A DNA stretch of 24,526 bases, taken from IMG/VR virus record IMGVR_UViG_3300036398_000019, positions 1 to 24,526 of that record, one strand, 5' to 3'. Positions 2,626 to 24,526 of the stretch are shown here, piece after piece (the first letter of the stretch is position 1; every line of letters starts with the position of its first letter). The position numbers were made by a program, and so were the translations under genes. The DNA is from a virus. The notes below the pieces were generated by a model. The model saw only the letters and a list, made by a program, of their open reading frames with translations, was not told the DNA's origin and made no database searches.

Positions 2626-4197
2626 ATGGCTGAGATGATGAGATTAAAACCAGAGGACATCCTCAAGCGCCACGACATAGCGTTGCGTAAGAAAGAGGAT
2701 TTTAGAGACCTATACGATGAGGCATATGAGTTTGCTCTGCCACAGCGTAACCTTTATGACGGCTACTATGATGGTAAGGTTGGCGGTGCTAAGAAGATGA
2801 ATCGTGTGTTTGATGCTACTGCTATTAATTCAACTCAGCGCTTTGCTAATCGTCTACAGTCAGGAATATTCCCGCCACAACGCAAATGGTGCAGATTAGA
2901 AACTGGCCCAGATATTCCAGAAGACCGCAAAGCAGAGGCATCCGCAGCGCTTGATATCTACGCAGACAAGATGTTTGCAACTCTCAAGCAATCTAACTTT
3001 GACATTGCGATGGGCGAGTTCTTGCTTGACCTGGCAGTTGGTACGGCTGTAATGATGGTTCAGCCTGGTGACGATACCAGCCCAATCAACTTCATTCCTG
3101 TGCCACAGTTCTTGGTTGCCTTTGAAGAGGGCGCTAATGGTCAGGTAGACAATGTATACAGACGTATGCGTATTAAAGGTGAGGCAATTATCCAGCAATG
3201 GAGAGATGCTGAGATTCCTACAGACTTACAGCAGAAGATTGACCAAAAGCCAACCGAAGACTTTGAGTTGATTGAGGCTACAGTATTTGATCCAAAGCGT
3301 GGAGATTTCTGCTATCACGTTATCCACAAAGAGTCTAAGCAAGAGCTGGTCTATCGCAGACTCAAGAAGAGTCCTTGGGTAGTCAGTCGCTACATGAAGG
3401 TAGCCGGTGAGATATACGGCAGAGGCCCATTGATTACTGCGTTGCCTGATATCAAGACATTGAATAAAACACTAGAGCTAGTATTAAAGAACGCATCTTT
3501 AGCTATATCCGGTGTGTATACAGCTGCTGACGATGGAGTTCTTAATCCAGCAACAGTCAAGATTGTGCCTGGCGCAATCATTCCTGTAGCTCGTAATGGT
3601 GGCCCACAAGGTGAATCACTCAAGCCATTGCCACGAGCTGGTGACTTTAACGTAGCTCAAATTATCATGGGAGACCTACGCGGAAACATCAAGCGCATAC
3701 TGCTAGACGAGAGTTTGCCTCCCGATAATATGTCTGCTCGCTCCGCAACGGAAGTCGTAGAACGTATGAAGGAGTTGAGTCAGAACCTCGGATCTGCATT
3801 TGGCCGATTAATTAATGAGACCATGATTCCACTTGTATCTAAGATACTACAAGTCATGGATGACAGAGGCATTATCGATATGCCTTTGCGTGTCAATGGA
3901 CTAGAGGTTAAGGTAGCGCCAGTTGCCCCATTAGCTATGGCTCAGAATATGGAAGACGTAACCAACGTCATGCAGTTCGTGCAGATGGCTCAAGGCTTTG
4001 GCCCAGAGGGTCAAGCCACACCTAAGATGGGCGAGATTACAGACTATATCGCAGACAAGCTGGGCATCCCATCAAGGTTGCGTAATGACTCAGCAGAGCG
4101 CCAATACAATCTCCAGCAGATTGCTCAACAGGCAGCTCAGGTTGCCGAGCAGAACCCAGAGGCTGTACCCGAAATGCTGAAAATGGCTGGAGGCTAA
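2626..4197 (+). CDS. Head-to-tail connector (portal) protein, T7 gp8-like
   Basis: A 523-residue protein, about the size of T7 gp8 (536). The ATG at 2626 sits one base after the previous stop with AAAGGA just upstream; a longer frame from 2572 is rejected because it would overlap the previous gene by 53 bases. The N-terminal part has LRKKEDFRDLYDEAYEFALP and RVFDATAINSTQRFANRLQS, typical of the head-to-tail connecting protein family (Pfam Head-tail_con). Further on are YGRGP, LP.IKTLNKTLELVLKNAS, and MSARSATEVVERMKEL, all recurrent in that family. Twelve copies are expected to form the ring through which DNA is packaged and to which the tail tube attaches. The C-terminus is Gln/Ala rich. Confidence 0.93.
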   Translation: MAEMMRLKPEDILKRHDIALRKKEDFRDLYDEAYEFALPQRNLYDGYYDGKVGGAKKMNRVFDATAINSTQRFANRLQSGIFPPQRKWCRLETGPDIPEDRKAEASAALDIYADKMFATLKQSNFDIAMGEFLLDLAVGTAVMMVQPGDDTSPINFIPVPQFLVAFEEGANGQVDNVYRRMRIKGEAIIQQWRDAEIPTDLQQKIDQKPTEDFELIEATVFDPKRGDFCYHVIHKESKQELVYRRLKKSPWVVSRYMKVAGEIYGRGPLITALPDIKTLNKTLELVLKNASLAISGVYTAADDGVLNPATVKIVPGAIIPVARNGGPQGESLKPLPRAGDFNVAQIIMGDLRGNIKRILLDESLPPDNMSARSATEVVERMKELSQNLGSAFGRLINETMIPLVSKILQVMDDRGIIDMPLRVNGLEVKVAPVAPLAMAQNMEDVTNVMQFVQMAQGFGPEGQATPKMGEITDYIADKLGIPSRLRNDSAERQYNLQQIAQQAAQVAEQNPEAVPEMLKMAGG

Positions 4198-9333: not shown

Positions 9334-9774
9334 ATGGCACTACCAGTTGCAATAGCACTTACAGTAATCAGCGCAGCTGGCTCTATCAAGGCTGGCCAAG
9401 ACCGCAACAAGATGTATCAGATGCAAGCCAAACAAGCAGAGGTTGAGGCTGACCGCAGAGCTGTGCAGTATGAGTTACAGGCTAACGATATTCTTAGACG
9501 TACTAACCAAGCCAACGCAGCCGTAGTGGCTCGTGGCTTTGCTGGTGGTATACAAGGTTTTGAGGGATCCGCTGGATTAATACAAGCTGTCAACAATACT
9601 CGCGGTGGCAAAGAGTTTACGTTTGCTTTACAAAATGCAGACATGGCACAACGCGGTGGTTTGATACAAGCAAGTCTGTATCGAGGTGCTGGGCAGATTG
9701 CTGAACAGGCTGGTTATTTTGATGCCGCTGGTAAGTTGGGTTCTGCTGGATTTCAGTTTGCAAAACTAGGATAG
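9334..9774 (+). CDS. Internal virion protein, T7 gp14-like
   Basis: A 146-residue protein with a hydrophobic N-terminus (MALPVAIALTVISAAGSIKAG), a long Gln/Ala/Glu/Arg helix (about 28-65), then glycine-rich segments with VVARGFAGGIQGFEGS and a C-terminal Ala/Gly tail. The helix pattern (A...A...A......n...l.r.......)  and the place after the nozzle gene match T7 gp14-type internal core proteins, which are ejected and form a channel in the outer membrane. The N-terminal hydrophobic stretch could act as a membrane insertion segment. Shorter than T7 gp14 (196), but in the same gene order. Confidence 0.75.
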   Translation: MALPVAIALTVISAAGSIKAGQDRNKMYQMQAKQAEVEADRRAVQYELQANDILRRTNQANAAVVARGFAGGIQGFEGSAGLIQAVNNTRGGKEFTFALQNADMAQRGGLIQASLYRGAGQIAEQAGYFDAAGKLGSAGFQFAKLG

Positions 9775-9781
9775 GTTAATT

Positions 9782-11452
9782 ATGGCTGAACTTCCACGCT
9801 ACCAACCAACTGGCTATTTGCCAGCAGACGTTCCACGTCTAGACTTTGCAAACATTAAAGAGTCTATAGCTATGACTCAGGGGATTAGCGCTGCATTAGA
9901 CCGCCTATCTAGCTTTGCTTTTAAAGAGGCAGCAGAGACAGCCCAAAGAGAGGGCGCTCAATATGGTGTAGAGAACGCACCAACAATGGAGCAAGTATTA
10001 AAAGCCCAAGAGGCTGGGCAAACCCCACAAGAGTTGTTTGCTAAACCAGGCACATACTTTGGCGATGCAGCTAGAAAAGTTCAAGCACAACAAGTTCGCA
10101 TTGATTTTGAAGCAAAGGCTAGACAAAACTTAGATGCAGTAAGTGCTGCTATTGATTCTGGAGCATTTGATTTAAATCAAATACAAACTGAAATAAAAGC
10201 GATTACTACTAAAAATGGTAGCTATCGCAAAGTGCTTGCATCTGTAGATGCTGACGAGGCATTGAAGTTTAGTGCATCAATAACAAGCGCTGGTAATGCT
10301 GTATACAAAAAAGCAACAGAACAATATTTGAAACTTGTTGGAATGCAAAACGAAAAGTTGGTTACCGATTCTCTTAATTCGTATTCAACAATGATTGCGG
10401 ATGTGATAAAAGCAGAGCAAGACCCAACAATGCTTGCAGAAAGAATTAGGGCTGAAGAGAATAGCGCTATTAAATTAATAGAAAGAAGCACAAGGCCTGA
10501 GTTCGTAAAACAAAAACGAGATGAGTTGCAAGATAAGATTTACTCTAATATTGCTGACCACCTAATTGACTCTAGCCCAAATGCAACACAGGCTTTATTA
10601 AAGTTGCAAAAGGGAGACGTTGGTAATCTAAGCGAGTTATACAAAGGACTCGATAAAGATAAGCTAGGAGCTATGTTCTTAAAGAAGGCTACAGAAAGAG
10701 CTAGTGCATTAACCGCTGCCAAGAATATTGAGAAGTTGGGCAATGAAGAAATGGTAAACGATTTGTTAATTGAGTATTACAACCCAGCTACCAGCGCAAC
10801 AAAAAAACTTGATATTGGTAAAAAAATAGCAAAGTCAAGAGTATTGTCTATAGACCAAATGGAAAAGTTTTTAAACCCATCATCAGATGGTGACTCTGCT
10901 GTTTTCTCAAATATAAGTTTGCAAGTTAGAACTGGTGTTATTACTGATTTAAATGATTTGCGTAAAATATCTGCTAGATCCGGGATAAGTGGAAAGCAAC
11001 TTGCTGATCTATCCAAACAGCTAATAGATAGAACTGAAAAAGATGAAGGACAGGCAGCCGCTATTATTCGCAGAAACGCTGGGTTGCCGGATGTTAGCGT
11101 TGGTAAAAACAAAGCCAATGCTCACGCTTTTGCTAAAGAGGCAAAACTAACCGAATACTATAACGAGGCTAAGAAAGCACAGCTATTAGATACTGGTTCA
11201 TTTGATCCAAAATCTGTCGCTAGTGTTGCTATACAAAGATACGAAAATGATGACAAGGCTAACATTGTAAAAAACAAAGCAAGAAAAGATATTTCTGGTG
11301 TTGTTGATTCGTTAGTCGCAAAGAAAAAAGTTGAAAAAGGTTTTGTGATTGATGAAAGTACCAGCCTAGATGATTTGCGTACAAGAAAAATTATTGATGA
11401 GAGTCAGTACAATTATTTAATTGGTTTACAAACTATATTGCAAGCACAATAA
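9782..11452 (+). CDS. Internal virion / ejection protein (gp15 position)
   Basis: A 556-residue, mostly helical, lysine- and alanine-rich protein. It begins MAELPRYQPTGYLPADVPRL, then ISAALDRLSSFAFKEA, EGAQYGVENAPTMEQVL and a GTYFGDAARKVQA segment. I know this opening (LPRYq..G........D.....e....a..i..alDr.s.fa...a.....eG..yG..n.Pt) from virion proteins of many phages with T7-like tails. There is no signal peptide. Order (gp14-like, this, two more large proteins, tail fibre) is that of T7 gp14-15-16-17, so it likely sits in the internal core and is ejected with DNA. Sequence-level similarity to T7 gp15 itself cannot be claimed. The ribosome site is weak (AGG), and the stop overlaps the next start by one base. 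Confidence 0.7.
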   Translation: MAELPRYQPTGYLPADVPRLDFANIKESIAMTQGISAALDRLSSFAFKEAAETAQREGAQYGVENAPTMEQVLKAQEAGQTPQELFAKPGTYFGDAARKVQAQQVRIDFEAKARQNLDAVSAAIDSGAFDLNQIQTEIKAITTKNGSYRKVLASVDADEALKFSASITSAGNAVYKKATEQYLKLVGMQNEKLVTDSLNSYSTMIADVIKAEQDPTMLAERIRAEENSAIKLIERSTRPEFVKQKRDELQDKIYSNIADHLIDSSPNATQALLKLQKGDVGNLSELYKGLDKDKLGAMFLKKATERASALTAAKNIEKLGNEEMVNDLLIEYYNPATSATKKLDIGKKIAKSRVLSIDQMEKFLNPSSDGDSAVFSNISLQVRTGVITDLNDLRKISARSGISGKQLADLSKQLIDRTEKDEGQAAAIIRRNAGLPDVSVGKNKANAHAFAKEAKLTEYYNEAKKAQLLDTGSFDPKSVASVAIQRYENDDKANIVKNKARKDISGVVDSLVAKKKVEKGFVIDESTSLDDLRTRKIIDESQYNYLIGLQTILQAQ

Positions 11453-13605
11453 TGGCATACACTAAATTTGAACAAACCTATGTAGATGCATATTTAAACA
11501 ATATGTATCCAGATGTTGAGGAAGAAGTGCAGCCTCAAGATACCATGTTGGCCGCAGCTCCTACTACCGAGCCTACTGGCCAAGTTACTGTGTCTGGATT
11601 TCAGCCACAACAAGTTAGGACAGATGTTCAGCCAGAGCTTGGTGTAGCTAGACCAATCCCACAGAATAAAGCCCAAGAGGCATTGGGATACATTGGCGAG
11701 TTGCTAACTAAGGCTGGTGTACAGCTTGATAAGGTTGGGATTGATATACCAGTATTAGGTAGGATATCTCTCAAGGATTTAACTGTTGGAGAGTCAGGCA
11801 AAGTATTAGAAGATATGGCTTTAGGCTTTTACCCTATTGAGGGAGCCGGTGGCTTTATCTCTGGCACGACTAGGATTAAACCTGATCCCGCATTAGAGTT
11901 ATTAAATATTGCACCGATTGCTGGAGCTGCTGCAAAGGCTGGTGGAAAGGCTGTAATTAAAGGTGCAACTAAAGCAGTACAGGCTACCAAGGGTATGCCA
12001 GTTGGCATGAGTACGCAGATGGTTGGCGAAGGTGTTAGCGAGCTTGGGTTCTATTCAGCAGCTAAAGAGGCTGTAGATGCTATCCAACAACCCAAAGGTA
12101 CTGGAGACCAATTCTTAAAGCAGATTGAAAAGACTCCCGGAGTTAAGCCAGATGAGATTAAATGGACAGGATTAGATGATTTCTTGAAGTCTAAGAAAAC
12201 AGTTACTAAGGCTGAGGTTCAAGAGTACCTAGACAAGAATCAAGTTGAGGTTAAAGAGGTTCAGTTGGGTTCTGGGCAAAACCAATACCCATATCGCACA
12301 GCTGATGAATGGCAAGGGGCTATTGACAGGGCTGAAAGAGCTGGAAATTATGATGAGTCTGAGCGTTTAACTAACGCATGGGAAGTGTTTGAGGGATTTG
12401 GTGTGCCTGACGAAGCGTTGGGAATACCTAACCAAACTAAGTTTTCTAAATATACATTGCCGGGCGGTGAGAACTATCGAGAGATATTGTTGACTTTGCC
12501 AGGCAGTATGCAAAAATTTGATTCAGAAAAAGTATCCATTTCTAGAAATAGGAGATCGGCTACACAGGGAACCTACAAGATTACTTATGATGGTAAACAA
12601 ATAGGCGAGTTTTCTGACAATTTTTCTGTAGAAAATAATTACGCTGGTTTGTCAGATGAAGAAATAATGAAAACTGCTCAACAGTTATTTGAGAAAGGCA
12701 ACCCATATTCTGGTATTGATGCCATGTCTGGTGGGTTCAAATCAACTCACTTTGACCAACCCAATATCCTAGCCCATCTCCGAGTTAATGACCGAGTAGA
12801 TGCTGACGGCAAGAAAGTGCTATTTGTAGAAGAGGTGCAATCTGATTGGCACCAAACTGGGCGCAAAAGGGGATACAAAAATCTAGATGTTGAAAAACAG
12901 ATTCTTGACATTGAAGAACAAATGTCAAATCTAGCTGATATTAGAGACCCAGTAACAAATCAAATTGTTAATGAACAAGAGTTTTCTGCTTTATGGCGCA
13001 AAAAAGATGAGCTTTTAAAGCAAATGGGAACTGTACCAGATGCCCCATTCAAAACCACATGGCATGAACTTGCCCTCAAACGTGCTATCCAACTTGCATC
13101 AGAAGGTGGCTATGACCGAGTAGCGTTTACTACTGGCAAGACTCAGGCAGAGCGCTATGATTTGAGTAAGCAGATTAGTGAAGTTAGTCTAAGCGGTACA
13201 AACTTAGTTGCTTATGATAAACAAGGTAATACAGTAATTAAACAAACTGGCGTTACAAAGGATAATCTTGCTGACTATATTGGCAAGGAGCCAGCTAAAA
13301 AGTTGCTTGACCAAGAGCCTCAAGGAACATTGCGAACAATCTCAGGCATTGACTTACAGGTTGGCGGTGAAGGCATGAAAGGCTTTTACGACACAATCCT
13401 ACCTAAGTTCTTAGACAAGTACGCTAAGAAGTGGGATGCTAAAACAAGTCAAATGAATATGTTTATTTCTCCTAGAGATGGTTCTGTTCAAATCCAATAC
13501 ATTGACGTTACCCCTAAAATGAAAGAATCTGTTTTAACTAAAGGTCAACCATTATTTGCTGTAGGTGGAGCTGGCGCTGCAATGCAACAAGAGGATAATA
13601 AATAA
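11452..13605 (+). CDS. Large virion-locus protein with conserved EVQSDWHQ-type domain
   Basis: A 717-residue protein in the internal-protein block. Residues 1-75 look disordered. Residues 126-180 are Gly/Ala rich and could associate with membrane. From about 220 a conserved region begins: GVKPDEIKWTGLDDFL (230-245), NYREILLTLPG (341-351), FKSTHFDQPNILAHLRVNDR (429-448), VLFVEEVQSDWHQTGRKRGY (456-475), PDAPFKTTWHELALKRAI (529-546), GYDRVAFTTGKTQAERYDLS (553-572) and a closing LTKGQPLF (695-702). I recognise this set from large phage and metagenomic polyvalent-type proteins, but know no established activity. Conserved His, Asp, Glu, Trp and Arg in these motifs hint at an enzyme. Residues about 478-526 look like a variable coiled-coil insertion. 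Starts and stops overlap its neighbours by one base. Confidence 0.7.
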   Translation: MAYTKFEQTYVDAYLNNMYPDVEEEVQPQDTMLAAAPTTEPTGQVTVSGFQPQQVRTDVQPELGVARPIPQNKAQEALGYIGELLTKAGVQLDKVGIDIPVLGRISLKDLTVGESGKVLEDMALGFYPIEGAGGFISGTTRIKPDPALELLNIAPIAGAAAKAGGKAVIKGATKAVQATKGMPVGMSTQMVGEGVSELGFYSAAKEAVDAIQQPKGTGDQFLKQIEKTPGVKPDEIKWTGLDDFLKSKKTVTKAEVQEYLDKNQVEVKEVQLGSGQNQYPYRTADEWQGAIDRAERAGNYDESERLTNAWEVFEGFGVPDEALGIPNQTKFSKYTLPGGENYREILLTLPGSMQKFDSEKVSISRNRRSATQGTYKITYDGKQIGEFSDNFSVENNYAGLSDEEIMKTAQQLFEKGNPYSGIDAMSGGFKSTHFDQPNILAHLRVNDRVDADGKKVLFVEEVQSDWHQTGRKRGYKNLDVEKQILDIEEQMSNLADIRDPVTNQIVNEQEFSALWRKKDELLKQMGTVPDAPFKTTWHELALKRAIQLASEGGYDRVAFTTGKTQAERYDLSKQISEVSLSGTNLVAYDKQGNTVIKQTGVTKDNLADYIGKEPAKKLLDQEPQGTLRTISGIDLQVGGEGMKGFYDTILPKFLDKYAKKWDAKTSQMNMFISPRDGSVQIQYIDVTPKMKESVLTKGQPLFAVGGAGAAMQQEDNK

Positions 13606-16583
13606 TGTCTATAAAACCACTTAACGAGCGCTTAGACGAGTTAGCTGGTCAAGGTGAGGTACAACCTAAACCAGTAGTTGAGATGCCCACAGAGGGCGCT
13701 AGAATCAATTTACAGGATGTCCAGCCTCTTGATTTTGAGCCAAGCGATATTGATGAATCCCAATCTATTCAAGTCGCTGGCAAGTTCACCCCCTTTGAAA
13801 ACATTGCTAAGATGTTTAGCAAAGAGACCAAGGGCTTGGCCAACAAGGGCAAGGATGCGGTAGACGAGGTTGTTCCACCAGAAATAATTAAGCCAGTAAC
13901 TACAGATGTACCCCTAAAAGTACCCAAAGCTAAGGGCATAGAGCAGCCTATATCAATCCAAAAGTTTGAGGAGGCTTTGCCCCTTGCTAAGACTGAGGGT
14001 GTGCCGCCAGAGCTATTACAAAACCTTAACCGCATTGAGGGGCCAGATGACCTCAAGCGTGTAGCAGATGCAATTAATAGAGCATCAGGCATCGAGGTAG
14101 AAAGAACCACCTTTGAGCAGTTGCAAAAGTTAGCCGTAGAGCGCGGTTTTGGCACATCGTTTATTCGGGAGATGGAAGACCTTAAATCCTTGTATGGTGA
14201 CTTGCCTATTGACTATATGCGCTTTAGGTTTGCAGCGCACAATAACGTATCCCAGTTTTACGAAACAATGCAGAAGTCGGCTCTTGATCCTAACAACCAA
14301 GAGCTAAAGGCCGAACTGCTTTATCGTTTAAATCTACAAAGCGCAATCTTAGAGTCTGGCATATCTATCAGAACTAAGGCTGCACAAACAACTGCATCCG
14401 GCAACATTGTTATACCAGCTCCAGATTCTGATGAAATGAAGAGGTTGCTTGCTGATCCAAAGGTTGATGAAGGGCTAAAGGATTTGATGGGCGCAATGGA
14501 TAACTTGCTTGAGACATCCTCAAAAGAGGGTCTCTTGAACAAAGTGTCCAAGGTTGGACTTTTGCGTGATCTGTGGGATTTAACATACAAAAATGGATTG
14601 CTATCCGCAACAGGCACACACCTTATTAACCTAAGTTCAAGCGTAACATTCATGGCTAGTACATTAGCGACTAGGCAGTTAGCTGGAATAGCTGGATCAA
14701 TTAAGCGTGGGTTTGGATTACAGGCAGAGGTTGAGGTGGGAGAGGCGGCAGCTGCACTAGCCGCGGTAACCCACACTTGGAGAGATGCTTTACGTCTTGG
14801 CTGGGTTGCACTAAAAACAGGAACCACCCGCGAAATGCGTGAGGGTCAAGACGTACTTAGTGATGCTGGTGTTAAGTTTGAGGTGCAGTCTGGCAAGTTT
14901 AATGCTAAAGACTATGGGCCACCAACTGGCTACTTTAAAAAGTTTGTTACTGAGCCTTTGGGAATAGAAGATGAAAGTTACTATAAAGGCATAAACTCAT
15001 ACGCTACATTTGTATCATTGCTAGGCAACAGGCCAATTATGGCAATGGATGAGGTAACCAAGTTTCTTGGTTACAGAGCTGAACTTTATACTCAGGCTTA
15101 TAGAGCAGCTGAGCAAGCCAAGCGCCAAGCAAGGTTAGATGGAAAGGTGGGCGATGAGATAGAAGAGATTGGCTTAAAAGCCATGAGCGATATCTTTATA
15201 AACACACCAAAAGCAATTGATGAAACCGCCACAGACTTTAGTCATATGTTGACATTTAGCAGAAAGCTAACTGGCGCATCAAAGGTTGTCCAAGAGTTAG
15301 CTCAAGAGAGCTTGATAGGCAGAATTAATTTGCCATTCGTTAAGACTCCAATTTGGGTTACTAGCGAATCAATGCAAAACAGCCTGATTGCCCCACTATC
15401 CAGTCAATGGCGAAAAGACATAGCAGAGGGCGGGGCAACTCGTGAGCTTGCTATGGCTAAGTGGGGCATGGGATCTGGCATTATGATTGGTGTTGGATCC
15501 TATGTTGCTGATGGTAGGATAACTGGCGGTGGCCCAGCCAACCAAAACCTAAGATCGGTTTACTTGGCGAGCGGGTGGAGGCCATACTCGTTTGTGTTTT
15601 CTGATGGCGAGTGGGATCAGGAGTTTGTCTCTTTCCTTGGCAAGATGCGTATGGATCCATCAGTTGGAAAAGATGGAAAACTATACGTTCCATTTAGGGG
15701 TTTAGATCCTATAGCTGGCTCGCTATCAATGGTGGCTGATGCTGTTGAGTATGCAAGATACGAGGATGACCAAGACCTTGTTGCACAAGTAATACTTGGT
15801 GGTGTATGGGGTCTCTATAACTATGTTGGCCAGCAACCCTGGCTAACAGCGTTAAGCTCTGTAACTGGCGCGTTCTCATCAACCATAGAGAACCCCAAGG
15901 CATCATTTAAAGCGGCTATAGAGTCCATCTTAACTGGTGGCGCAACCTATGCAATAGAGGGTTCTCCGGCCGGTATATTCAGCTCGGCTAGAGGTATGGT
16001 TGCAAGGATTGTAGATCCAACCGCAAGAGATGTAGCAGCCGATCCAAACGAAGACATGATAACCAAGGCTGCTCATAAAGCCATCAACAAATACAGATCC
16101 AAGACCCCAGGTCTTTCTGAGGATTTGCCAGAAAGATACGATATGTTTGGCGAGCTAGAGTACAGAGCTGACCCATCTAATCCAGGGCTATCTTCTCTGT
16201 CTGGTATTAGGTATCAAGAAAGCAAGCAAAGAACGTCTGACAAGATAATTATTTCTTTGGGTCTGCCAATTCAAAAGCCAAAGCGCATCATTGATGTTGG
16301 CGATGTTAAGGTAAAGATTACACCAGAGGAATACCAGTACTGGTTAAGCAGAATAGGCAAAGTAAGCATAGATGGTGAAGGAGTACAGAAAGCAATTGTA
16401 ATAGCTGCAAATGCTCCTGGCTTTAATGTTCTTGGAAAGAATGAAAAACAAGAGACCATAAAAGAAGTGTACGCACAATATGTAAGTTTAGCTAAAGAGG
16501 ATTTGCTTGAGCGTTTCCCAGCGATATCTATTAGGGCGCAAGAGGCTGAGGCAAAGCTACCGATTTATGGTGTACCAAAATAA
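13605..16583 (+). CDS. Giant internal virion / DNA ejection protein (gp16 position)
   Basis: A 992-residue protein, the largest in the window. Residues 1-120 are Pro/Lys/Glu rich and probably disordered. The core carries motifs I know from very large virion proteins of aquatic phages: NGLLSATGTHLINLSSSVTF (330-349), INLPFVKTPIWV (574-585), Q.RKDIAEGGATRELAMAKW (601-620), ITGGGPANQNLR with LASGWRPYSF (639-663), and PFRGLDPI. Hydrophobic stretches near 338-365 and 620-635 may contact membrane. No lytic transglycosylase motif like that of T7 gp16 is seen. By position it should be the main ejected protein that carries DNA across the cell envelope. The C-terminal third (about 830-990) is soluble and charged. 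Confidence 0.75.
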   Translation: MSIKPLNERLDELAGQGEVQPKPVVEMPTEGARINLQDVQPLDFEPSDIDESQSIQVAGKFTPFENIAKMFSKETKGLANKGKDAVDEVVPPEIIKPVTTDVPLKVPKAKGIEQPISIQKFEEALPLAKTEGVPPELLQNLNRIEGPDDLKRVADAINRASGIEVERTTFEQLQKLAVERGFGTSFIREMEDLKSLYGDLPIDYMRFRFAAHNNVSQFYETMQKSALDPNNQELKAELLYRLNLQSAILESGISIRTKAAQTTASGNIVIPAPDSDEMKRLLADPKVDEGLKDLMGAMDNLLETSSKEGLLNKVSKVGLLRDLWDLTYKNGLLSATGTHLINLSSSVTFMASTLATRQLAGIAGSIKRGFGLQAEVEVGEAAAALAAVTHTWRDALRLGWVALKTGTTREMREGQDVLSDAGVKFEVQSGKFNAKDYGPPTGYFKKFVTEPLGIEDESYYKGINSYATFVSLLGNRPIMAMDEVTKFLGYRAELYTQAYRAAEQAKRQARLDGKVGDEIEEIGLKAMSDIFINTPKAIDETATDFSHMLTFSRKLTGASKVVQELAQESLIGRINLPFVKTPIWVTSESMQNSLIAPLSSQWRKDIAEGGATRELAMAKWGMGSGIMIGVGSYVADGRITGGGPANQNLRSVYLASGWRPYSFVFSDGEWDQEFVSFLGKMRMDPSVGKDGKLYVPFRGLDPIAGSLSMVADAVEYARYEDDQDLVAQVILGGVWGLYNYVGQQPWLTALSSVTGAFSSTIENPKASFKAAIESILTGGATYAIEGSPAGIFSSARGMVARIVDPTARDVAADPNEDMITKAAHKAINKYRSKTPGLSEDLPERYDMFGELEYRADPSNPGLSSLSGIRYQESKQRTSDKIIISLGLPIQKPKRIIDVGDVKVKITPEEYQYWLSRIGKVSIDGEGVQKAIVIAANAPGFNVLGKNEKQETIKEVYAQYVSLAKEDLLERFPAISIRAQEAEAKLPIYGVPK

Positions 16584-16628: not shown

Positions 16629-18086
16629 ATGGCTGATTATGCGATATCTAACGTAGCAAGACGTGTGGTCTACACCAATACTGGTGTCGGGCCATACTCG
16701 TTTACGTTTGAAGTTCTTGCCAATACCGATATCGCTGTATATCGCGGCAGTACATTACTGACTCTGACCACAGATTACACAGTAATTATCAACGCTAACG
16801 GCACAGGCTCAGTTACCTTGGTTGTCGCTGGCACAGGCAATATTACAATTGTTGGCTCAAGAGCAATTCAACGCACTAGCGACTATACGACAGGCGGTGA
16901 CTTGTTCGCCAGCACCCTTAATACTGACCTAGACTCCCAGACCATCTACGCACAGCAAGTCGCTGAGACCGCAGAGCGTGGACTCAAGGCTCCAGTAACA
17001 GATCCAACAGATATCGCAATGACCTTACCAGCCAAGGATGGCCGTAAGGGTAAGGTATTAGCGTTTGACTCTACAACCGGCAACCCTGTAGCTGGCCCAG
17101 CGCTGGATGCGGTGACTACTGTTATCGAGCAGTCGGCCAACATTAATACTGTTGCTACCAATATTGCATCGGTTAATACTGTTGCTGGCAATACATCGAA
17201 TATCAATACTGTAGCTGGCATTAGCGGTAACGTCACTACTGTTGCTGGGGTGTCGGCTAGTGTAACCACAGTTGCCGGTATCTCGGCTAACGTAACAACT
17301 GTCGCTGGCAATAATGCTAACGTAAGCACAGTAGCGGGTATCTCTGGTAACGTCACTACAGTAGCTGGTATCTCAGCCAATGTGACTACAGTTGCTGGTA
17401 TCTCTAGTAATGTGTCAACTGTAGCCACAAATAATGCAAACGTAACAACTGTAGCTACAAATATTGCATCAGTTAACACTAACGCTACAAACATTGTTGC
17501 AATTCAGAACGCCTCTACTAACGCTACTAATGCTGCTACCTCTGCTACTAATGCAGCCAATAGCGCAACAGCTGCACAAAACGCACAGACCGCAGCAGAG
17601 GCAGCTCTAGATAGTTTTACTGATACCTACCTAGGTGCGTTTGCTACCGATCCCACGCTAGATAATGACGGCAACGCTCTGACTGCGGGTGACTTGTATT
17701 TCAATACAGGCATCAATCGTCTAAAAGTTTATAGTGGCGCAACGTGGTCAGTTGCAGTAGTTGACACAACAACTGTCGTTGAGAAAACCAGCGCTACTGG
17801 ATCAGCTGTAATCCCAGCTGGTACTACTGGGCAACGTGATGGCTCACCAGCCAACGGATACTTTAGATACAACTCCACGCTCGCATCCTTTGAGGGATAT
17901 GTCGGTGGTGCCTGGGGTGGAGTAGGTGGCGCACAAGCCGGTGGAGTTATCTTTGAAAACGCACTAACGATTAGCGCAAACTATACCCTGACAACTAGCA
18001 AGAATGGATTTAGTGTGGGGCCGATCACGATCTCGAATGGTGCCGTAGTAACTATTGGTTCTGGACAGAGATGGGTGGTGATATAG
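16629..18086 (+). CDS. Tail fibre protein with T7 gp17-type N-terminus and ten-residue repeats
   Basis: A 485-residue fibre. Residues 1-140 match the T7 fibre anchor domain (GPYSFTFEVLANTDIAVYRG, then Y.V..N..G, ITIVGSRAIQRTSDYTTGGD, LNTDLDSQTIYAQQ). Residues 171-290 are twelve ten-residue repeats of type NV(T/S)TVAGISA, followed by an Ala/Asn/Thr-rich segment (about 292-328) likely to be a trimeric coiled coil. Then come DNDGNALTAGDLYFNTG (about 342-358), a GTTGQRDGSPANGYFRYNST region (about 398-417) and a C-terminal module ending in GPITISNGAVVTIGSGQRWVVI-like strands that I know as a normal fibre end. So the protein appears complete although an endonuclease gene overlaps its last 16 bases. 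It should recognise the host surface. Confidence 0.9.
   Translation: MADYAISNVARRVVYTNTGVGPYSFTFEVLANTDIAVYRGSTLLTLTTDYTVIINANGTGSVTLVVAGTGNITIVGSRAIQRTSDYTTGGDLFASTLNTDLDSQTIYAQQVAETAERGLKAPVTDPTDIAMTLPAKDGRKGKVLAFDSTTGNPVAGPALDAVTTVIEQSANINTVATNIASVNTVAGNTSNINTVAGISGNVTTVAGVSASVTTVAGISANVTTVAGNNANVSTVAGISGNVTTVAGISANVTTVAGISSNVSTVATNNANVTTVATNIASVNTNATNIVAIQNASTNATNAATSATNAANSATAAQNAQTAAEAALDSFTDTYLGAFATDPTLDNDGNALTAGDLYFNTGINRLKVYSGATWSVAVVDTTTVVEKTSATGSAVIPAGTTGQRDGSPANGYFRYNSTLASFEGYVGGAWGGVGGAQAGGVIFENALTISANYTLTTSKNGFSVGPITISNGAVVTIGSGQRWVVI
17139..17498 (+). repeat. Twelve in-frame 30-bp tandem repeats in the tail fibre gene
   Basis: Twelve contiguous 30-base units encode N-V/I-N/T/S-T-V-A-G/T-x-x-x. 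Central units (17229-17408) are most alike; the outer ones are diverged. The units lie head to tail with no spacers and no codon break, giving a regular beta-type or coiled shaft whose length could change by whole units through recombination or slippage. Confidence 0.9.
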
Positions 18087-18655
18087 TGTTTTATACATAT
18101 GCTCATTACACTCCAGAGGGTAAAATCTTTTATATTGGTAAAGGTATAAAGGATAGAGCTTATTCTTTTTCAGATCGTAGCCATAATTGGAAACGTGCTG
18201 TTAAAGATAACAAGGGTGTAAGCATTGAAATATTAGCTCATTGGGATACAGAGCAAGAGGCCTTTGAACATGAGAAAGTTTTAATTAGTTGTTTTGCTGA
18301 TATGAAACAACCGCTAGTAAATAAAACAAAAGGCGGCAAGGGTGCATATGGAATTGTATTTTCAGAAGAGCGAAAAGAATATTTAAAAAATAAACTTACT
18401 GGCATTAAGCATAAAGAAGTTACTTGCCCAACTTGCAAAAAGGTTGGTGGCATTACAAGTATGAAACGCTGGCATTTTGAAAATTGTGTTGGCAATAAAC
18501 CATACAGAGCAAGAGTCACTATTGATGGTAAGAGAATGTATTTGGGTTATTTTGAAACTAAAGAGTTAGCAACACAAGCAGAAATTAATGCGTATAACGA
18601 AGTAAACAAACCTTTGCCAAAAGAGTTTATTAGACATAAAGGGTTAAGCATATGA
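18071..18655 (+). CDS. GIY-YIG homing endonuclease with zinc finger and AP2-like domain
   Basis: A 194-residue site-specific endonuclease. The GIY-YIG nuclease core is at about 7-78: FYTYAHY, IFYIGKG with Tyr21, Arg29, and EQEAFEHEKVLI with the likely catalytic Glu68. A zinc finger follows: Cys119, Cys122, His135, Cys139. Residues 144-178 (PYRARVTIDGKRMYLGYFET and following helix) are an AP2-like DNA-binding domain. The first ATG, 18071, lies inside the last 16 bases of the fibre gene. GTG at 18086, sharing its G with the fibre TAG, would begin exactly at the nuclease domain and is a good alternative start. Its stop overlaps the ATG of the next tail gene (ATGA). It is more AT rich than its neighbours, which fits lateral arrival. 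Such genes spread by cutting phage genomes that lack them. Confidence 0.9.
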   Translation: MGGDIVFYTYAHYTPEGKIFYIGKGIKDRAYSFSDRSHNWKRAVKDNKGVSIEILAHWDTEQEAFEHEKVLISCFADMKQPLVNKTKGGKGAYGIVFSEERKEYLKNKLTGIKHKEVTCPTCKKVGGITSMKRWHFENCVGNKPYRARVTIDGKRMYLGYFETKELATQAEINAYNEVNKPLPKEFIRHKGLSI

Positions 18656-20169: not shown

Positions 20170-20390
20170 TTACCATTAACTTTGACAAAGCCAAAGCGAT
20201 TACTAAAGACCGCCTAAGAGCAGAGCGTACACCTTTATTACAAGCCCAAGATGTAGCGTTTCAGAGAGCGTTAGAGTCGGGTGCAGACACCACAGCAATC
20301 GTAGCTGAGAAACAACGGCTAAGAGATATTACCCAACTAGCTGACCAAGCCACCACGCTTGAGCAGTTAAAACAAATTGAGGTGAAATAA
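20166..20390 (+). CDS. Small helical tail-cluster protein (74 residues)
   Basis: The ATG at 20166 overlaps the preceding stop and is preferred over an in-frame ATG at 20151. The protein is helical and charged: MITINFDKAKAITKDRLRAE, then a Gln/Ala/Leu region and a closing helix TLEQLKQIEV. The pattern (MI.in..KAkaI..d..R..R...l...D......a) is usual for the partner of the previous small gene in phage fibre clusters. Likely a fibre assembly helper, not proven. Its terminal GAGG serves as ribosome site for the HNH gene that starts at its last base. Confidence 0.68.
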   Translation: MITINFDKAKAITKDRLRAERTPLLQAQDVAFQRALESGADTTAIVAEKQRLRDITQLADQATTLEQLKQIEVK

Positions 20391-20902
20391 TGCCTATAAC
20401 CTTAGACGGCACAGCACAACGCTTTAATGAAGCGTTTGAGTACCGCAATGGCGAACTGTATTGGAAAATTAATACCAATCCATCAAAGCGTCTAATCGGT
20501 AAGCGTGCTGGTTGTATGTCTAGTATGTATGGTGTAGTAAACCTAGATGGTCAGGCTTACTGTATCCATAAGGTAATTTTCTGTATGCATCATGGTTATA
20601 TGCCTGAAGTGGTTGACCATATTAACGGAGTTAAAAAAGACCACAGAATTGAAAACTTGCGTGCCGCCAATCATCAATCGAATAATTGGAACAAGACTGT
20701 GCAAAGCAACAATAAGTTAAGAATGAAGAACATTAGTTGGCACAAGCAAAACAAGAAGTATTGGGTGCAGATTACCCAAAATAGAAAGAAAGTTTACAGT
20801 CAAATGTTTGATGATTTAGAACTTGCCGAACTTGTAGCTGTCATGGCAAGAGAAAAATATCATGGTAAGTTTGCTAATCATGGAGAATTTAAATGCCAGT
20901 AA
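20390..20902 (+). CDS. HNH homing endonuclease with AP2-like domain
   Basis: A 170-residue endonuclease. FEYRNGELYWK (16-26), GKRAG, a Y..HKVIF..HHGYMP stretch and VVDHINGVKKDHRIENLRAAN (75-95) are the HNH nuclease core, with the DH pair at 76-77 as likely base/metal site. The middle position is DHR where most relatives have DNR. Residues 111-157 (ISWHKQNKKYWVQITQN, VYSQMF and a helix) look like a degenerate AP2-type DNA-binding domain. The first eight residues, MPITLDGT, do not belong to the usual endonuclease start but resemble the start of the following tail gene (MPVIIDGT). It begins on the last base of the preceding stop and overlaps the next gene by ten bases. Confidence 0.88.
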   Translation: MPITLDGTAQRFNEAFEYRNGELYWKINTNPSKRLIGKRAGCMSSMYGVVNLDGQAYCIHKVIFCMHHGYMPEVVDHINGVKKDHRIENLRAANHQSNNWNKTVQSNNKLRMKNISWHKQNKKYWVQITQNRKKVYSQMFDDLELAELVAVMAREKYHGKFANHGEFKCQ

Positions 20903-23317: not shown

Positions 23318-23796
23318 TTGACCATAAAGTTATTGAGATGATTCGGCACCACGAGGGTGTACGAACAACTCCCTATCGGTGTCCAGCATTACTGTGGACA
23401 GTTGGTGTCGGAAGAGTAATAGATCCCAATCACATAAAGGTGAAACTTGAAGAGCGTAAGAACCTACCAATCCCAGACGGCTGGAACAGAACCCTCTCAA
23501 TGGAAGAGGTGGATAAACTTCTTGCTGAAGACTTGGCAAGGTTTGAGAGCGGGGTACGCAGACTATGTCCTGATGGCCTTACTCCTGGGAGGTTTGGCGC
23601 ACTCGTCAGCTTTGCCTTTAATGTTGGATTGGGTAATCTTCAACGCTCAACGCTAAGAATGAAACACAATCGCGGAGACTTTGAGGGTGCCGCTGAGGCC
23701 TTTCTCGATTGGACAAAGGCTGGCGGCAAGGTTCTCAAAGGTTTGGTATCAAGGCGCAATGATGAACGCGCCCTCTACCTAAGCAACACCATCTAA
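23314..23796 (+). CDS. Endolysin, GH24 lysozyme (T4/lambdoid type)
   Basis: A 160-residue muramidase that cuts the glycan chain of peptidoglycan. The ATG at 23314 (ATGA overlap) is preferred over one at 23284. Catalytic spacing is kept: Glu14 in HHEGVR, eight residues, then Cys23 in PYRCPALLWTVGVGR, five residues, then Thr29. Thus the usual E-8-D-5-T triad of GH24 reads E-8-C-5-T. The conserved region RFGALVSFAFNVGLGNLQRS and the end VLKGLVSRRNDERALYL are typical of the family. No signal peptide or signal-anchor is present, so release needs the holin. Its last 18 bases overlap the convergent ERF gene. Confidence 0.9.
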   Translation: MIDHKVIEMIRHHEGVRTTPYRCPALLWTVGVGRVIDPNHIKVKLEERKNLPIPDGWNRTLSMEEVDKLLAEDLARFESGVRRLCPDGLTPGRFGALVSFAFNVGLGNLQRSTLRMKHNRGDFEGAAEAFLDWTKAGGKVLKGLVSRRNDERALYLSNTI

Positions 23797-24526
23797 TACT
23801 TTCTTACGATTCTGCTTTGCGCTGGTCATTATGACCATCTGAGTGGGTGATAGCATCTCAATGGTGGTTTTGTTTAGCGTGTTGAACTCCAACAGTTTCT
23901 TTTGCTTGTCAGCCAATGCCAGCTTGGAGTTGGCTACTTTATCCGCAACTGTGTTGTATTGGCTAATAAACTCTTCAATGTTTTTACACTCGATGGCATC
24001 CTTGCCGGGTATCTGTAGCCTAACTGACCCCGGAGGTGGAAGTGTTGTTTTTACGCTACTAGGTATATCCTCTTTAATCGAGTTCAGATCAACTTTCGGT
24101 GTGGGTGTAGGGATAGGTACCCCAGCGAGCTTTGGAATCGAATCTAGGGGGTTTCTAGCGGTTCTAGAGGCAGCGTTACCATCATCATCCTCTGGCGCTA
24201 TACCACAGGCAGCCATCAGGCTGTACCTACGAGCGTAGGTCAGAGCTGATCCATACCCTTGGGGGTCTTGCTTGCTTGCTGGAACGTGTAGAACTCCACA
24301 GGAGAGAGACTCACCAGACTCATGCAGTAGCAATGTTTCTACATTGACTCCTGTATCGGACTCGTGGCATTTCTGTATCAAAGCGATGCCGTTATTGTTC
24401 AGCGCATCAATGACCGCCTCCACACAAGCAGCCAGGTCAGCGTACTTGGATGTGAAGTATGGATTGGTTGATGACTTGAGAGCTGGGCCAAATTCTTTCT
24501 GTGCCTTGACCATGGCTGTTGCGATT
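23779..24526 (-). CDS. ERF-family single-strand annealing protein (5' end outside window)
   Basis: The minus-strand frame remains open to the window edge; an internal Met lies at 24513, but family members have more residues before it, so the true start is probably beyond 24526. The visible part (about 248 residues) has KAQKEFGPALKSSTNPYFTS, KYADLAACVEAVIDALNNNG and the ERF signature GYGSALTYARRYSLMAACGI followed by PEDDDGN. These proteins anneal single strands during phage recombination and repair. A Pro-rich linker and a charged helical tail follow. Transcription runs against the lysis genes, marking a different module; the TAG stop falls inside the endolysin 3' end. Confidence 0.88.
   Translation of the reverse strand, partial: IATAMVKAQKEFGPALKSSTNPYFTSKYADLAACVEAVIDALNNNGIALIQKCHESDTGVNVETLLLHESGESLSCGVLHVPASKQDPQGYGSALTYARRYSLMAACGIAPEDDDGNAASRTARNPLDSIPKLAGVPIPTPTPKVDLNSIKEDIPSSVKTTLPPPGSVRLQIPGKDAIECKNIEEFISQYNTVADKVANSKLALADKQKKLLEFNTLNKTTIEMLSPTQMVIMTSAKQNRKKVLDGVA

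What the first reader, a model, noticed from the sequence alone, without database searches (positions are those of the whole stretch)
11452..13605. Probable ejected protein with an uncharacterised conserved domain
The 717-residue protein stands in the internal virion block but its conserved part (motifs YREILL, HFDQPNILAHLR, EEVQSDWHQTGR, PFKTTWHELALKRAI, GYDRVAFTTG..QAERY, GQPLF) looks like an enzyme rather than a structural rod, with invariant-looking His, Glu, Asp, Trp and Arg. If ejected with DNA, it could act in the host at the first moment of infection, for instance as a counter-defence or host-modifying factor. A variable coiled-coil insertion (about 478-526) inside the conserved domain adds to the interest.
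Basis: partly seen in the sequence, partly recalled or inferred. Interest (0 to 1): 0.6.

Follow-up and report, generated by a model that had tools for sequence, protein, structure and literature searches.

The report
Ejected phage enzyme with swappable loops
A short-tailed freshwater phage carries, among the proteins it probably injects with its DNA, a large enzyme-like domain predicted to fold like acetyltransferases; related phages exchange the whole domain, and individual surface loops within it, suggesting an evolving weapon used on the host at the first moment of infection.

Summary
The 717-aa ORF (11452-13605) is real, under strong purifying selection (core dN/dS 0.04-0.13) and sits between candidate ejection proteins in a T7-like structural block. 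It has three layers. (1) An N-terminal ~165-aa region that goes with the phage's ejection-protein set. (2) A ~500-aa C-terminal domain with 12 residues invariant in 123 diverse relatives. No Pfam or NCBIfam model, PADLOC model or PDB sequence matches it. Two independent AlphaFold models (pLDDT 88 and 89) give a GNAT (acetyltransferase) fold: all 50 listed structural matches in each are GNATs (Z up to 10.3; tRNA-acetylating toxins AtaT/TacT/KacT at Z 9-10). The canonical acetyl-CoA loop motif is not conserved. The domain recurs in >580 viral stretches and in giant polyvalent proteins of phages and plasmids. (3) Within the domain, five loops are shuffled combinatorially between phages while the core stays constant; two lie where GNATs bind acceptor substrates. 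At the same gene position, other phages carry DUF7178 or ADP-ribosyltransferase cargo behind a common or related N-terminus, with sharp DNA breakpoints. Best reading: an ejected, swappable effector enzyme of GNAT fold. Acetyltransferase activity, the target and virion presence are inferred, not shown.

The parts
11452..13605 (+). 717-aa protein: N-terminal adaptor plus GNAT-fold cargo domain
   Evidence: ORF and translation; same-size homologues in same position in about 20 viral contigs
11452..11961 (+). N-terminal adaptor (aa 1-170), goes with the ejection-protein set, shared by proteins with different C-termini
   Evidence: 95-97% identical in phages with unrelated cargo; breakpoint at 11965-11979; replaced as a block in L002/L004-type phages
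12034..12267 (+). conserved helical subdomain at start of cargo (aa 195-272; FYS...GVKPDEIKWTGLDDFL...)
   Evidence: alignments A1/A2, model
12268..12435 (+). hypervariable loop A (aa 273-328), in the GNAT alpha1-alpha2 region between beta1 and beta2
12436..12501 (+). core: beta2 with invariant Glu344 (aa 329-350, LPGGENYREILLTLP)
12502..12735 (+). hypervariable loop B (aa 351-428)
12736..12873 (+). core: beta3-beta4 with invariant Arg444, Glu461, Gln463, Ser464 (aa 429-474)
13033..13179 (+). core: alpha3-beta5 with invariant Pro532, Trp537, Arg568 (aa 528-576)
13180..13347 (+). hypervariable loop D (aa 577-632)
13348..13443 (+). core: long helix before beta6 (GNAT alpha4 position) with invariant Tyr646 (aa 633-664)
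13444..13497 (+). hypervariable loop E, beta6-beta7 hairpin (aa 665-682)
9334..9774 (+). candidate internal virion protein (phrog_418)
9782..11452 (+). 556-aa candidate ejection protein upstream (no family match), diverges together with the adaptor
13605..16583 (+). 992-aa internal virion (ejection) protein downstream (phrog_6651)

Best explanation
The protein is a virion cargo protein ejected with the DNA. Its first ~165 residues dock it to the phage's internal (ejection) proteins. Its last ~500 residues are an enzyme of GNAT (Gcn5-related acyltransferase) fold that modifies a host molecule (a protein or a charged tRNA) as the phage DNA enters. A constant core carries the active site (candidates Glu344, Arg444, Glu461, Arg568, Tyr646). 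Five exchangeable surface loops, two at the GNAT acceptor-binding elements, re-tune target recognition or evade host countermeasures. Shown here by computation: the ORF, the family, the predicted fold, modularity, cargo swapping and loop shuffling. Inferred: packaging, ejection, catalysis, acyl donor and target.
For: Fold: model of the window domain pLDDT 88.0, pTM 0.81; all 50 listed VIA entries are GNAT-fold structures, best Z 10.3, TacT3 9.6, NatD 9.2. An independent compact relative gave pLDDT 89.1, pTM 0.82, again 50 of 50 GNAT, 114 chains at Z>=8, rank 50 still Z 8.2, with AtaT, KacT and TacT near 10. Enzyme: 12 invariant residues in 123 relatives, dN/dS 0.04-0.13. Delivery context: between ejection proteins; the same domain occurs in giant phage/plasmid proteins with ART-PolyVal, LPD23, LPD38 or ddrB-ParB domains; Pelagibacter phage HTVC028P gp34 has it directly before its 'internal virion protein'. 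Swapping: unrelated C-termini behind the same N-terminus, and ART-PolyVal (E 7.6e-19) or DUF7178 at the same slot. Loop shuffling in the cargo but not in neighbouring proteins.
Against: No virion proteomics exists for it. Foldseek alone gives no PDB hit at E<=0.001. Profile-profile comparison with PF00583-type GNATs is not significant (E 0.33), although it aligns alpha3-beta5. The GNAT [QR]xxGx[GA] acetyl-CoA loop occurs in only 30 of 123 members, against 31 of 33 control GNATs. The closest structural match, the ICL2 C-terminal domain, binds acetyl-CoA as a regulator (PMC6788997). Most stand-alone relatives sit on short contigs without the window-type ejectosome genes.
Confidence: 0.5

Rival explanations
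1. It is delivered to the host but is not an acetyltransferase: the GNAT-like scaffold uses another donor (for example aminoacyl-tRNA or another acyl carrier) or binds a ligand without catalysis, as in the CoA-sensing C-terminal domain of isocitrate lyase 2.
For: Canonical acetyl-CoA loop motif not conserved; long insertions between beta4 and alpha3, where CoA sits in GNATs; top structural match is ICL2, an acetyl-CoA-responsive domain (PMC6788997).
Against: Twelve invariant residues, including polar ones on beta2, beta3, beta4 and the alpha4-position helix, look catalytic.
Confidence: 0.27
2. It is a structural part of the internal core or ejectosome that never reaches the cytoplasm; the domain is a scaffold or plug.
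For: Position between two internal virion proteins.
Against: The same domain is used in plasmid-borne and giant polyvalent proteins; it is replaced by ART or DUF7178 in related phages, for DUF7178 with very similar ejectosomes; hypervariable loops next to conserved structural neighbours; enzyme-like fold and invariants.
Confidence: 0.12
3. It is a cell-wall enzyme (endolysin/ejection lysin), as the PHROG label and the Nostoc phage annotation say.
For: phrog_7348 'endolysin' matches residues 429-703; Nostoc phage Nsp-JY18 'lysin' contains the domain.
Against: The labelled proteins are 2500-4000 aa multidomain proteins; Pfam finds no lysozyme, amidase or peptidase in the matched region and the fold is GNAT. 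The label most likely comes from other domains of those proteins.
Confidence: 0.04

Closest known systems
Polyvalent proteins of phages and conjugative elements (Iyer et al. 2017, PMC5512222)
   Same: The domain occurs in the same giant proteins (for example the 12-ART protein of Pseudomonas aeruginosa plasmids) and beside ART-PolyVal, ddrB-ParB, LPD23 and LPD38 domains; predicted delivery with DNA; solo versions are known for many such domains.
   Different: Here it is a solo cargo on a dedicated N-terminal adaptor; no Pfam LPD, ART or GNAT model matches the domain; loop shuffling and slot swapping are not described in the passages read.
GNAT toxins AtaT/TacT/KacT (acetylate charged tRNA)
   Same: Closest catalytic structures (Z about 10); an invariant Tyr in the alpha4-position helix, where these toxins have their catalytic Tyr (placement by topology, from own knowledge).
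   Different: About 3 times larger with five insertions; no sequence similarity; acetyl-CoA loop motif not conserved; not a toxin-antitoxin pair; delivered by a phage particle (inferred).
RimI-like GNATs of polyvalent proteins (Iyer et al. 2017, section 11)
   Same: GNAT domains in phage/plasmid polyvalent proteins, often next to ART.
   Different: Those are RimI-clade by sequence; here no Pfam acetyltransferase model is among the families shown for 31 members even at E<=1.
T4 Alt (ejected ADP-ribosyltransferase)
   Same: Works-like model: enzyme packaged in the virion, injected with DNA, modifies host proteins at once (PMC5512222).
   Different: Different fold and chemistry; unrelated sequence.
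T7-like ejection proteins gp14/gp15/gp16
   Same: Same genomic position and presumably the same route.
   Different: Those build the channel; this protein is an accessory cargo.

Membership tests
GNAT acetyltransferase superfamily | GNAT fold (beta1-alpha1-alpha2-beta2-beta3-beta4-alpha3-beta5-alpha4-beta6-beta7) | tested here: met
   Two independent models; 50 of 50 listed entries GNAT, Z up to 10.3; order of elements consistent. Prediction only, Foldseek E > 0.001.
GNAT acetyltransferase superfamily | conserved acetyl-CoA pyrophosphate loop [QR]xxGx[GA] between beta4 and alpha3 | tested here: not met
   30 of 123 members by regular expression against 31 of 33 control GNATs; no acetyltransferase Pfam family shown among hits of 31 members.
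GNAT acetyltransferase superfamily | significant profile similarity to known GNATs | tested here: not met
   hhalign E 0.33-0.38, probability 0.2%; alignment falls on alpha3-beta5 but is not significant.
GNAT acetyltransferase superfamily | acyl-CoA binding and transfer | not testable with these tools
   needs biochemistry
Polyvalent proteins (Iyer 2017) | several effector-type domains in one phage/plasmid polypeptide | tested here: not met
   The window protein has one recognisable effector domain plus adaptor; its homologues in L048, L052, L054 and L029 do meet it.
Polyvalent proteins (Iyer 2017) | the domain itself circulates in polyvalent proteins | tested here: met
   Domain in proteins of 1300-5300 aa, some with ART-PolyVal, LPD23, LPD38 or ddrB-ParB.
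Pfam LPD families | match to a Pfam LPD model at its cut-off | tested here: not met
   No significant LPD match within the domain in 31 members (best LPD5, E 0.023, one member); LPD23 lies elsewhere (2226-2282) in the plasmid protein, the domain at 3314-3806.
Internal virion / ejection protein | gene in the ejectosome block, co-varying with ejection proteins | tested here: met
Internal virion / ejection protein | present in the virion and ejected | not testable with these tools
   needs proteomics
Endolysin | muralytic catalytic domain | tested here: not met
   No such Pfam domain in the window protein or family; fold is GNAT-like.

The most novel reading that the evidence does not exclude
Short-tailed freshwater phages deliver alternative effector enzymes (a new GNAT-fold family, an ADP-ribosyltransferase, DUF7178) through one ejection slot. 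For the GNAT-fold effector they shuffle substrate-facing loops combinatorially on a fixed catalytic core: a recombining arms-race repertoire of injected enzymes in bacterial viruses.
Probability: 0.45. Interest if true: 0.82.

Novelty: new variant of a known kind. Interest (0 to 1): 0.64.

Why it matters
The domain is common (over 580 viral stretches in one scan, plus plasmids and prophage-like contigs of many phyla) yet has no Pfam, NCBIfam or PDB entry and is sometimes labelled lysin. If right, it adds an acyltransferase-type effector to the short list of enzymes injected by phages. It also gives a natural experiment, with cargo swaps and loop swaps on constant backgrounds, in which target choice and host countermeasures can be tested directly.

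Tried and rejected
Pfam, NCBIfam, PADLOC and PDB sequence searches with the whole protein: nothing significant, also with the family profile. The weak DUF84/NTPase hit (E 0.06-0.09) is below cut-off and seen in one member only: rejected. LPD23 membership, suggested by the name of the plasmid protein: rejected, LPD23 lies elsewhere. Endolysin label: rejected (see rivals). Foldseek alone gave no PDB match at E<=0.001 for either model; the fold rests on the VIA second look and on consistency across two models. Profile-profile match to GNATs was not significant. Assembly chimaera as the cause of loop shuffling: judged unlikely, because the same mosaics recur in separate metagenomes (L005/L006/L007; L014/L015) and neighbouring proteins show none. 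Phage-collection DNA search with the window: no match. Paper searches found no description of loop shuffling or of this domain.

Full report
WHAT IS THERE. It lies in a podovirus structural block: portal PF12236, capsid PF19821, nozzle/tail phrog_376, phrog_418 internal virion protein, a 556-aa protein, this protein, a 992-aa protein matching phrog_6651 (internal virion protein), then a tail fibre. The closest isolate is Methylophilales phage MEP301 by its portal (77% identity). MEP301 carries different genes in this slot. The host is therefore probably a methylophilales bacterium (inference).

FAMILY. Pfam, NCBIfam, PADLOC and PDB sequence searches give nothing significant. The PHROG hit is to one region of a 2564-position profile labelled endolysin. 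Scans found 50 related loci with the single sequence and 587 confirmed stretches with the profile in viral contigs, and 135 in bacterial/archaeal contigs. Of 196 nearly full copies, 92 are in proteins of at most 1000 aa (90 of them in viral or phage loci) and 104 in larger proteins; nearly all copies in genome contigs (67 of 69) are in the large proteins. Several of the large ones are polyvalent proteins: the Pseudomonas aeruginosa plasmid protein has 12 ART-PolyVal stretches and an LPD23, another has LPD38 plus ART-PolyVal, another ddrB-ParB. The domain itself is none of these (positions).

CONSERVATION. In 123 members, twelve residues are invariant: E344, R444, E461, Q463, S464, P532, W537, A549, G562, R568, G611 and Y646 (most counted again). 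Core dN/dS against ten relatives is 0.04-0.13.

FOLD. The window domain was modelled at pLDDT 88.0, pTM 0.81; a compact relative lacking most insertions at 89.1 and 0.82. In the VIA second look every one of the 50 listed entries for each model has the GNAT fold. Top Z values are 10.3 (ICL2 C-terminal domain), 10.2 (AtaT), 10.1 (KacT), 10.0 (TacT3) and about 9 (NatD, GCN5); rank 50 is at Z 8.2 for the compact model. The tool's own yardstick for models without a clear match is 7-8 at best and 4-5 at rank 50. Caveats: Foldseek alone has no PDB match at E<=0.001, profile-profile comparison with GNATs is not significant, and the usual acetyl-CoA loop motif occurs in 30 of 123 members against 31 of 33 control GNATs. 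So the fold is well supported, membership among catalytic acetyl-CoA GNATs is not. By topology, Glu461 lies on beta4 and Tyr646 in the helix before beta6, positions where GNATs often carry the general base and the general acid (own knowledge, not tested by superposition).

CARGO SWAP. Close relatives share nozzle, 556-aa and 992-aa proteins (67-99%) and the first ~155-171 residues of this protein (95-97%), but then carry unrelated C-termini: a 622-aa form and a 665/666-aa form with DUF7178. Conversely, L002 and L004 have 92-99% identical DNA over most conserved cargo blocks but no alignable DNA over the first ~167 codons, most of the 556-aa gene and nearly all of the 992-aa gene. The breakpoints coincide: about 11953-11979 on the left and 13601-13640 on the right. 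In L224 the slot holds an ART-PolyVal domain (E 7.6e-19), with a C-terminal tail like that of the window protein. The N-terminal module therefore goes with the ejection machinery and the C-terminal module is exchangeable cargo.

LOOP SHUFFLING. Inside the cargo the DNA matches stop at the borders of five loops, A 273-328, B 351-428, C 475-527, D 577-632 and E 665-682. Among 26 relatives the core segments fall into one to three sequence types each, whereas the loops fall into 17-21 types that recombine freely. Identities are bimodal. For example L012/L018 share loop E at 98% and the other loops at no more than 25%; L017/L019 share loop D at 97%, others at most 32%; L004/L014 loop C at 99%, others at most 30%; L005/L017 loop B at 97%, others at most 32%. 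In two phages (L218, L003) whose neighbouring proteins are 89-98% identical to the window's, 50-residue windows never fall below 0.62 identity in the neighbours but go down to 0.08 in the cargo. Loops A and E fall on the alpha1-alpha2 region and the beta6-beta7 hairpin, the acceptor-binding elements of GNATs (own knowledge of the family; mapping).

MECHANISM. Best reading: a virion-packaged cargo protein enters with the DNA and its GNAT-fold enzyme modifies a host molecule, with loops setting specificity or evading host factors. Iyer et al. predicted this logic for polyvalent proteins and cite injected T4 Alt as model (PMC5512222). They reported two RimI-like GNAT families there; this one is not detectable by such models. 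Steps shown by computation: gene, family, predicted fold, modular swapping, loop shuffling. Steps inferred: packaging, ejection, catalysis, donor and target.

VERDICT. New variant of a known kind: an undescribed GNAT-fold cargo of the polyvalent-protein world, here solo on an ejection adaptor, with recombining loops.

Noticed in passing
L224:2513-4477: Related phage carries an ART-PolyVal (ADP-ribosyltransferase) cargo in the same slot with a C-terminal tail like the window's (GAAMQQEENK).
   Followed up: partly
L217:8004-9998; L221:8001-9998; L237:3679-5532; L254:756-2684: DUF7178 (PF23802, phrog_3842) recurs as alternative cargo in the same slot; function unknown, a good candidate for a second injected effector.
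   Followed up: partly
L055:1201-13239 (Nostoc phage Nsp-JY18) and phrog_7348: Lysin/endolysin labels on giant multidomain proteins spread to this domain, which is not muralytic by fold; likely mis-annotation.
   Followed up: partly
L223:8133-9998; L226:7497-9905: Further slot proteins (622 and 803 aa) have no Pfam or PHROG match; unexamined cargo types.
   Followed up: no
window 20390-20902 (+): HNH_3 endonuclease (PF13392, E 1.4e-11), possibly a homing enzyme.
   Followed up: no
window 18071-18655 (+): Weak GIY-YIG-like match right after the tail fibre gene (E 0.001); MEP301 has a 'putative endonuclease' in a similar place.
   Followed up: no
window 23779-24513 (-): ERF-family recombinase (PF04404) on the opposite strand; single-strand annealing recombination could feed the mosaicism seen in the cargo gene.
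   Followed up: no
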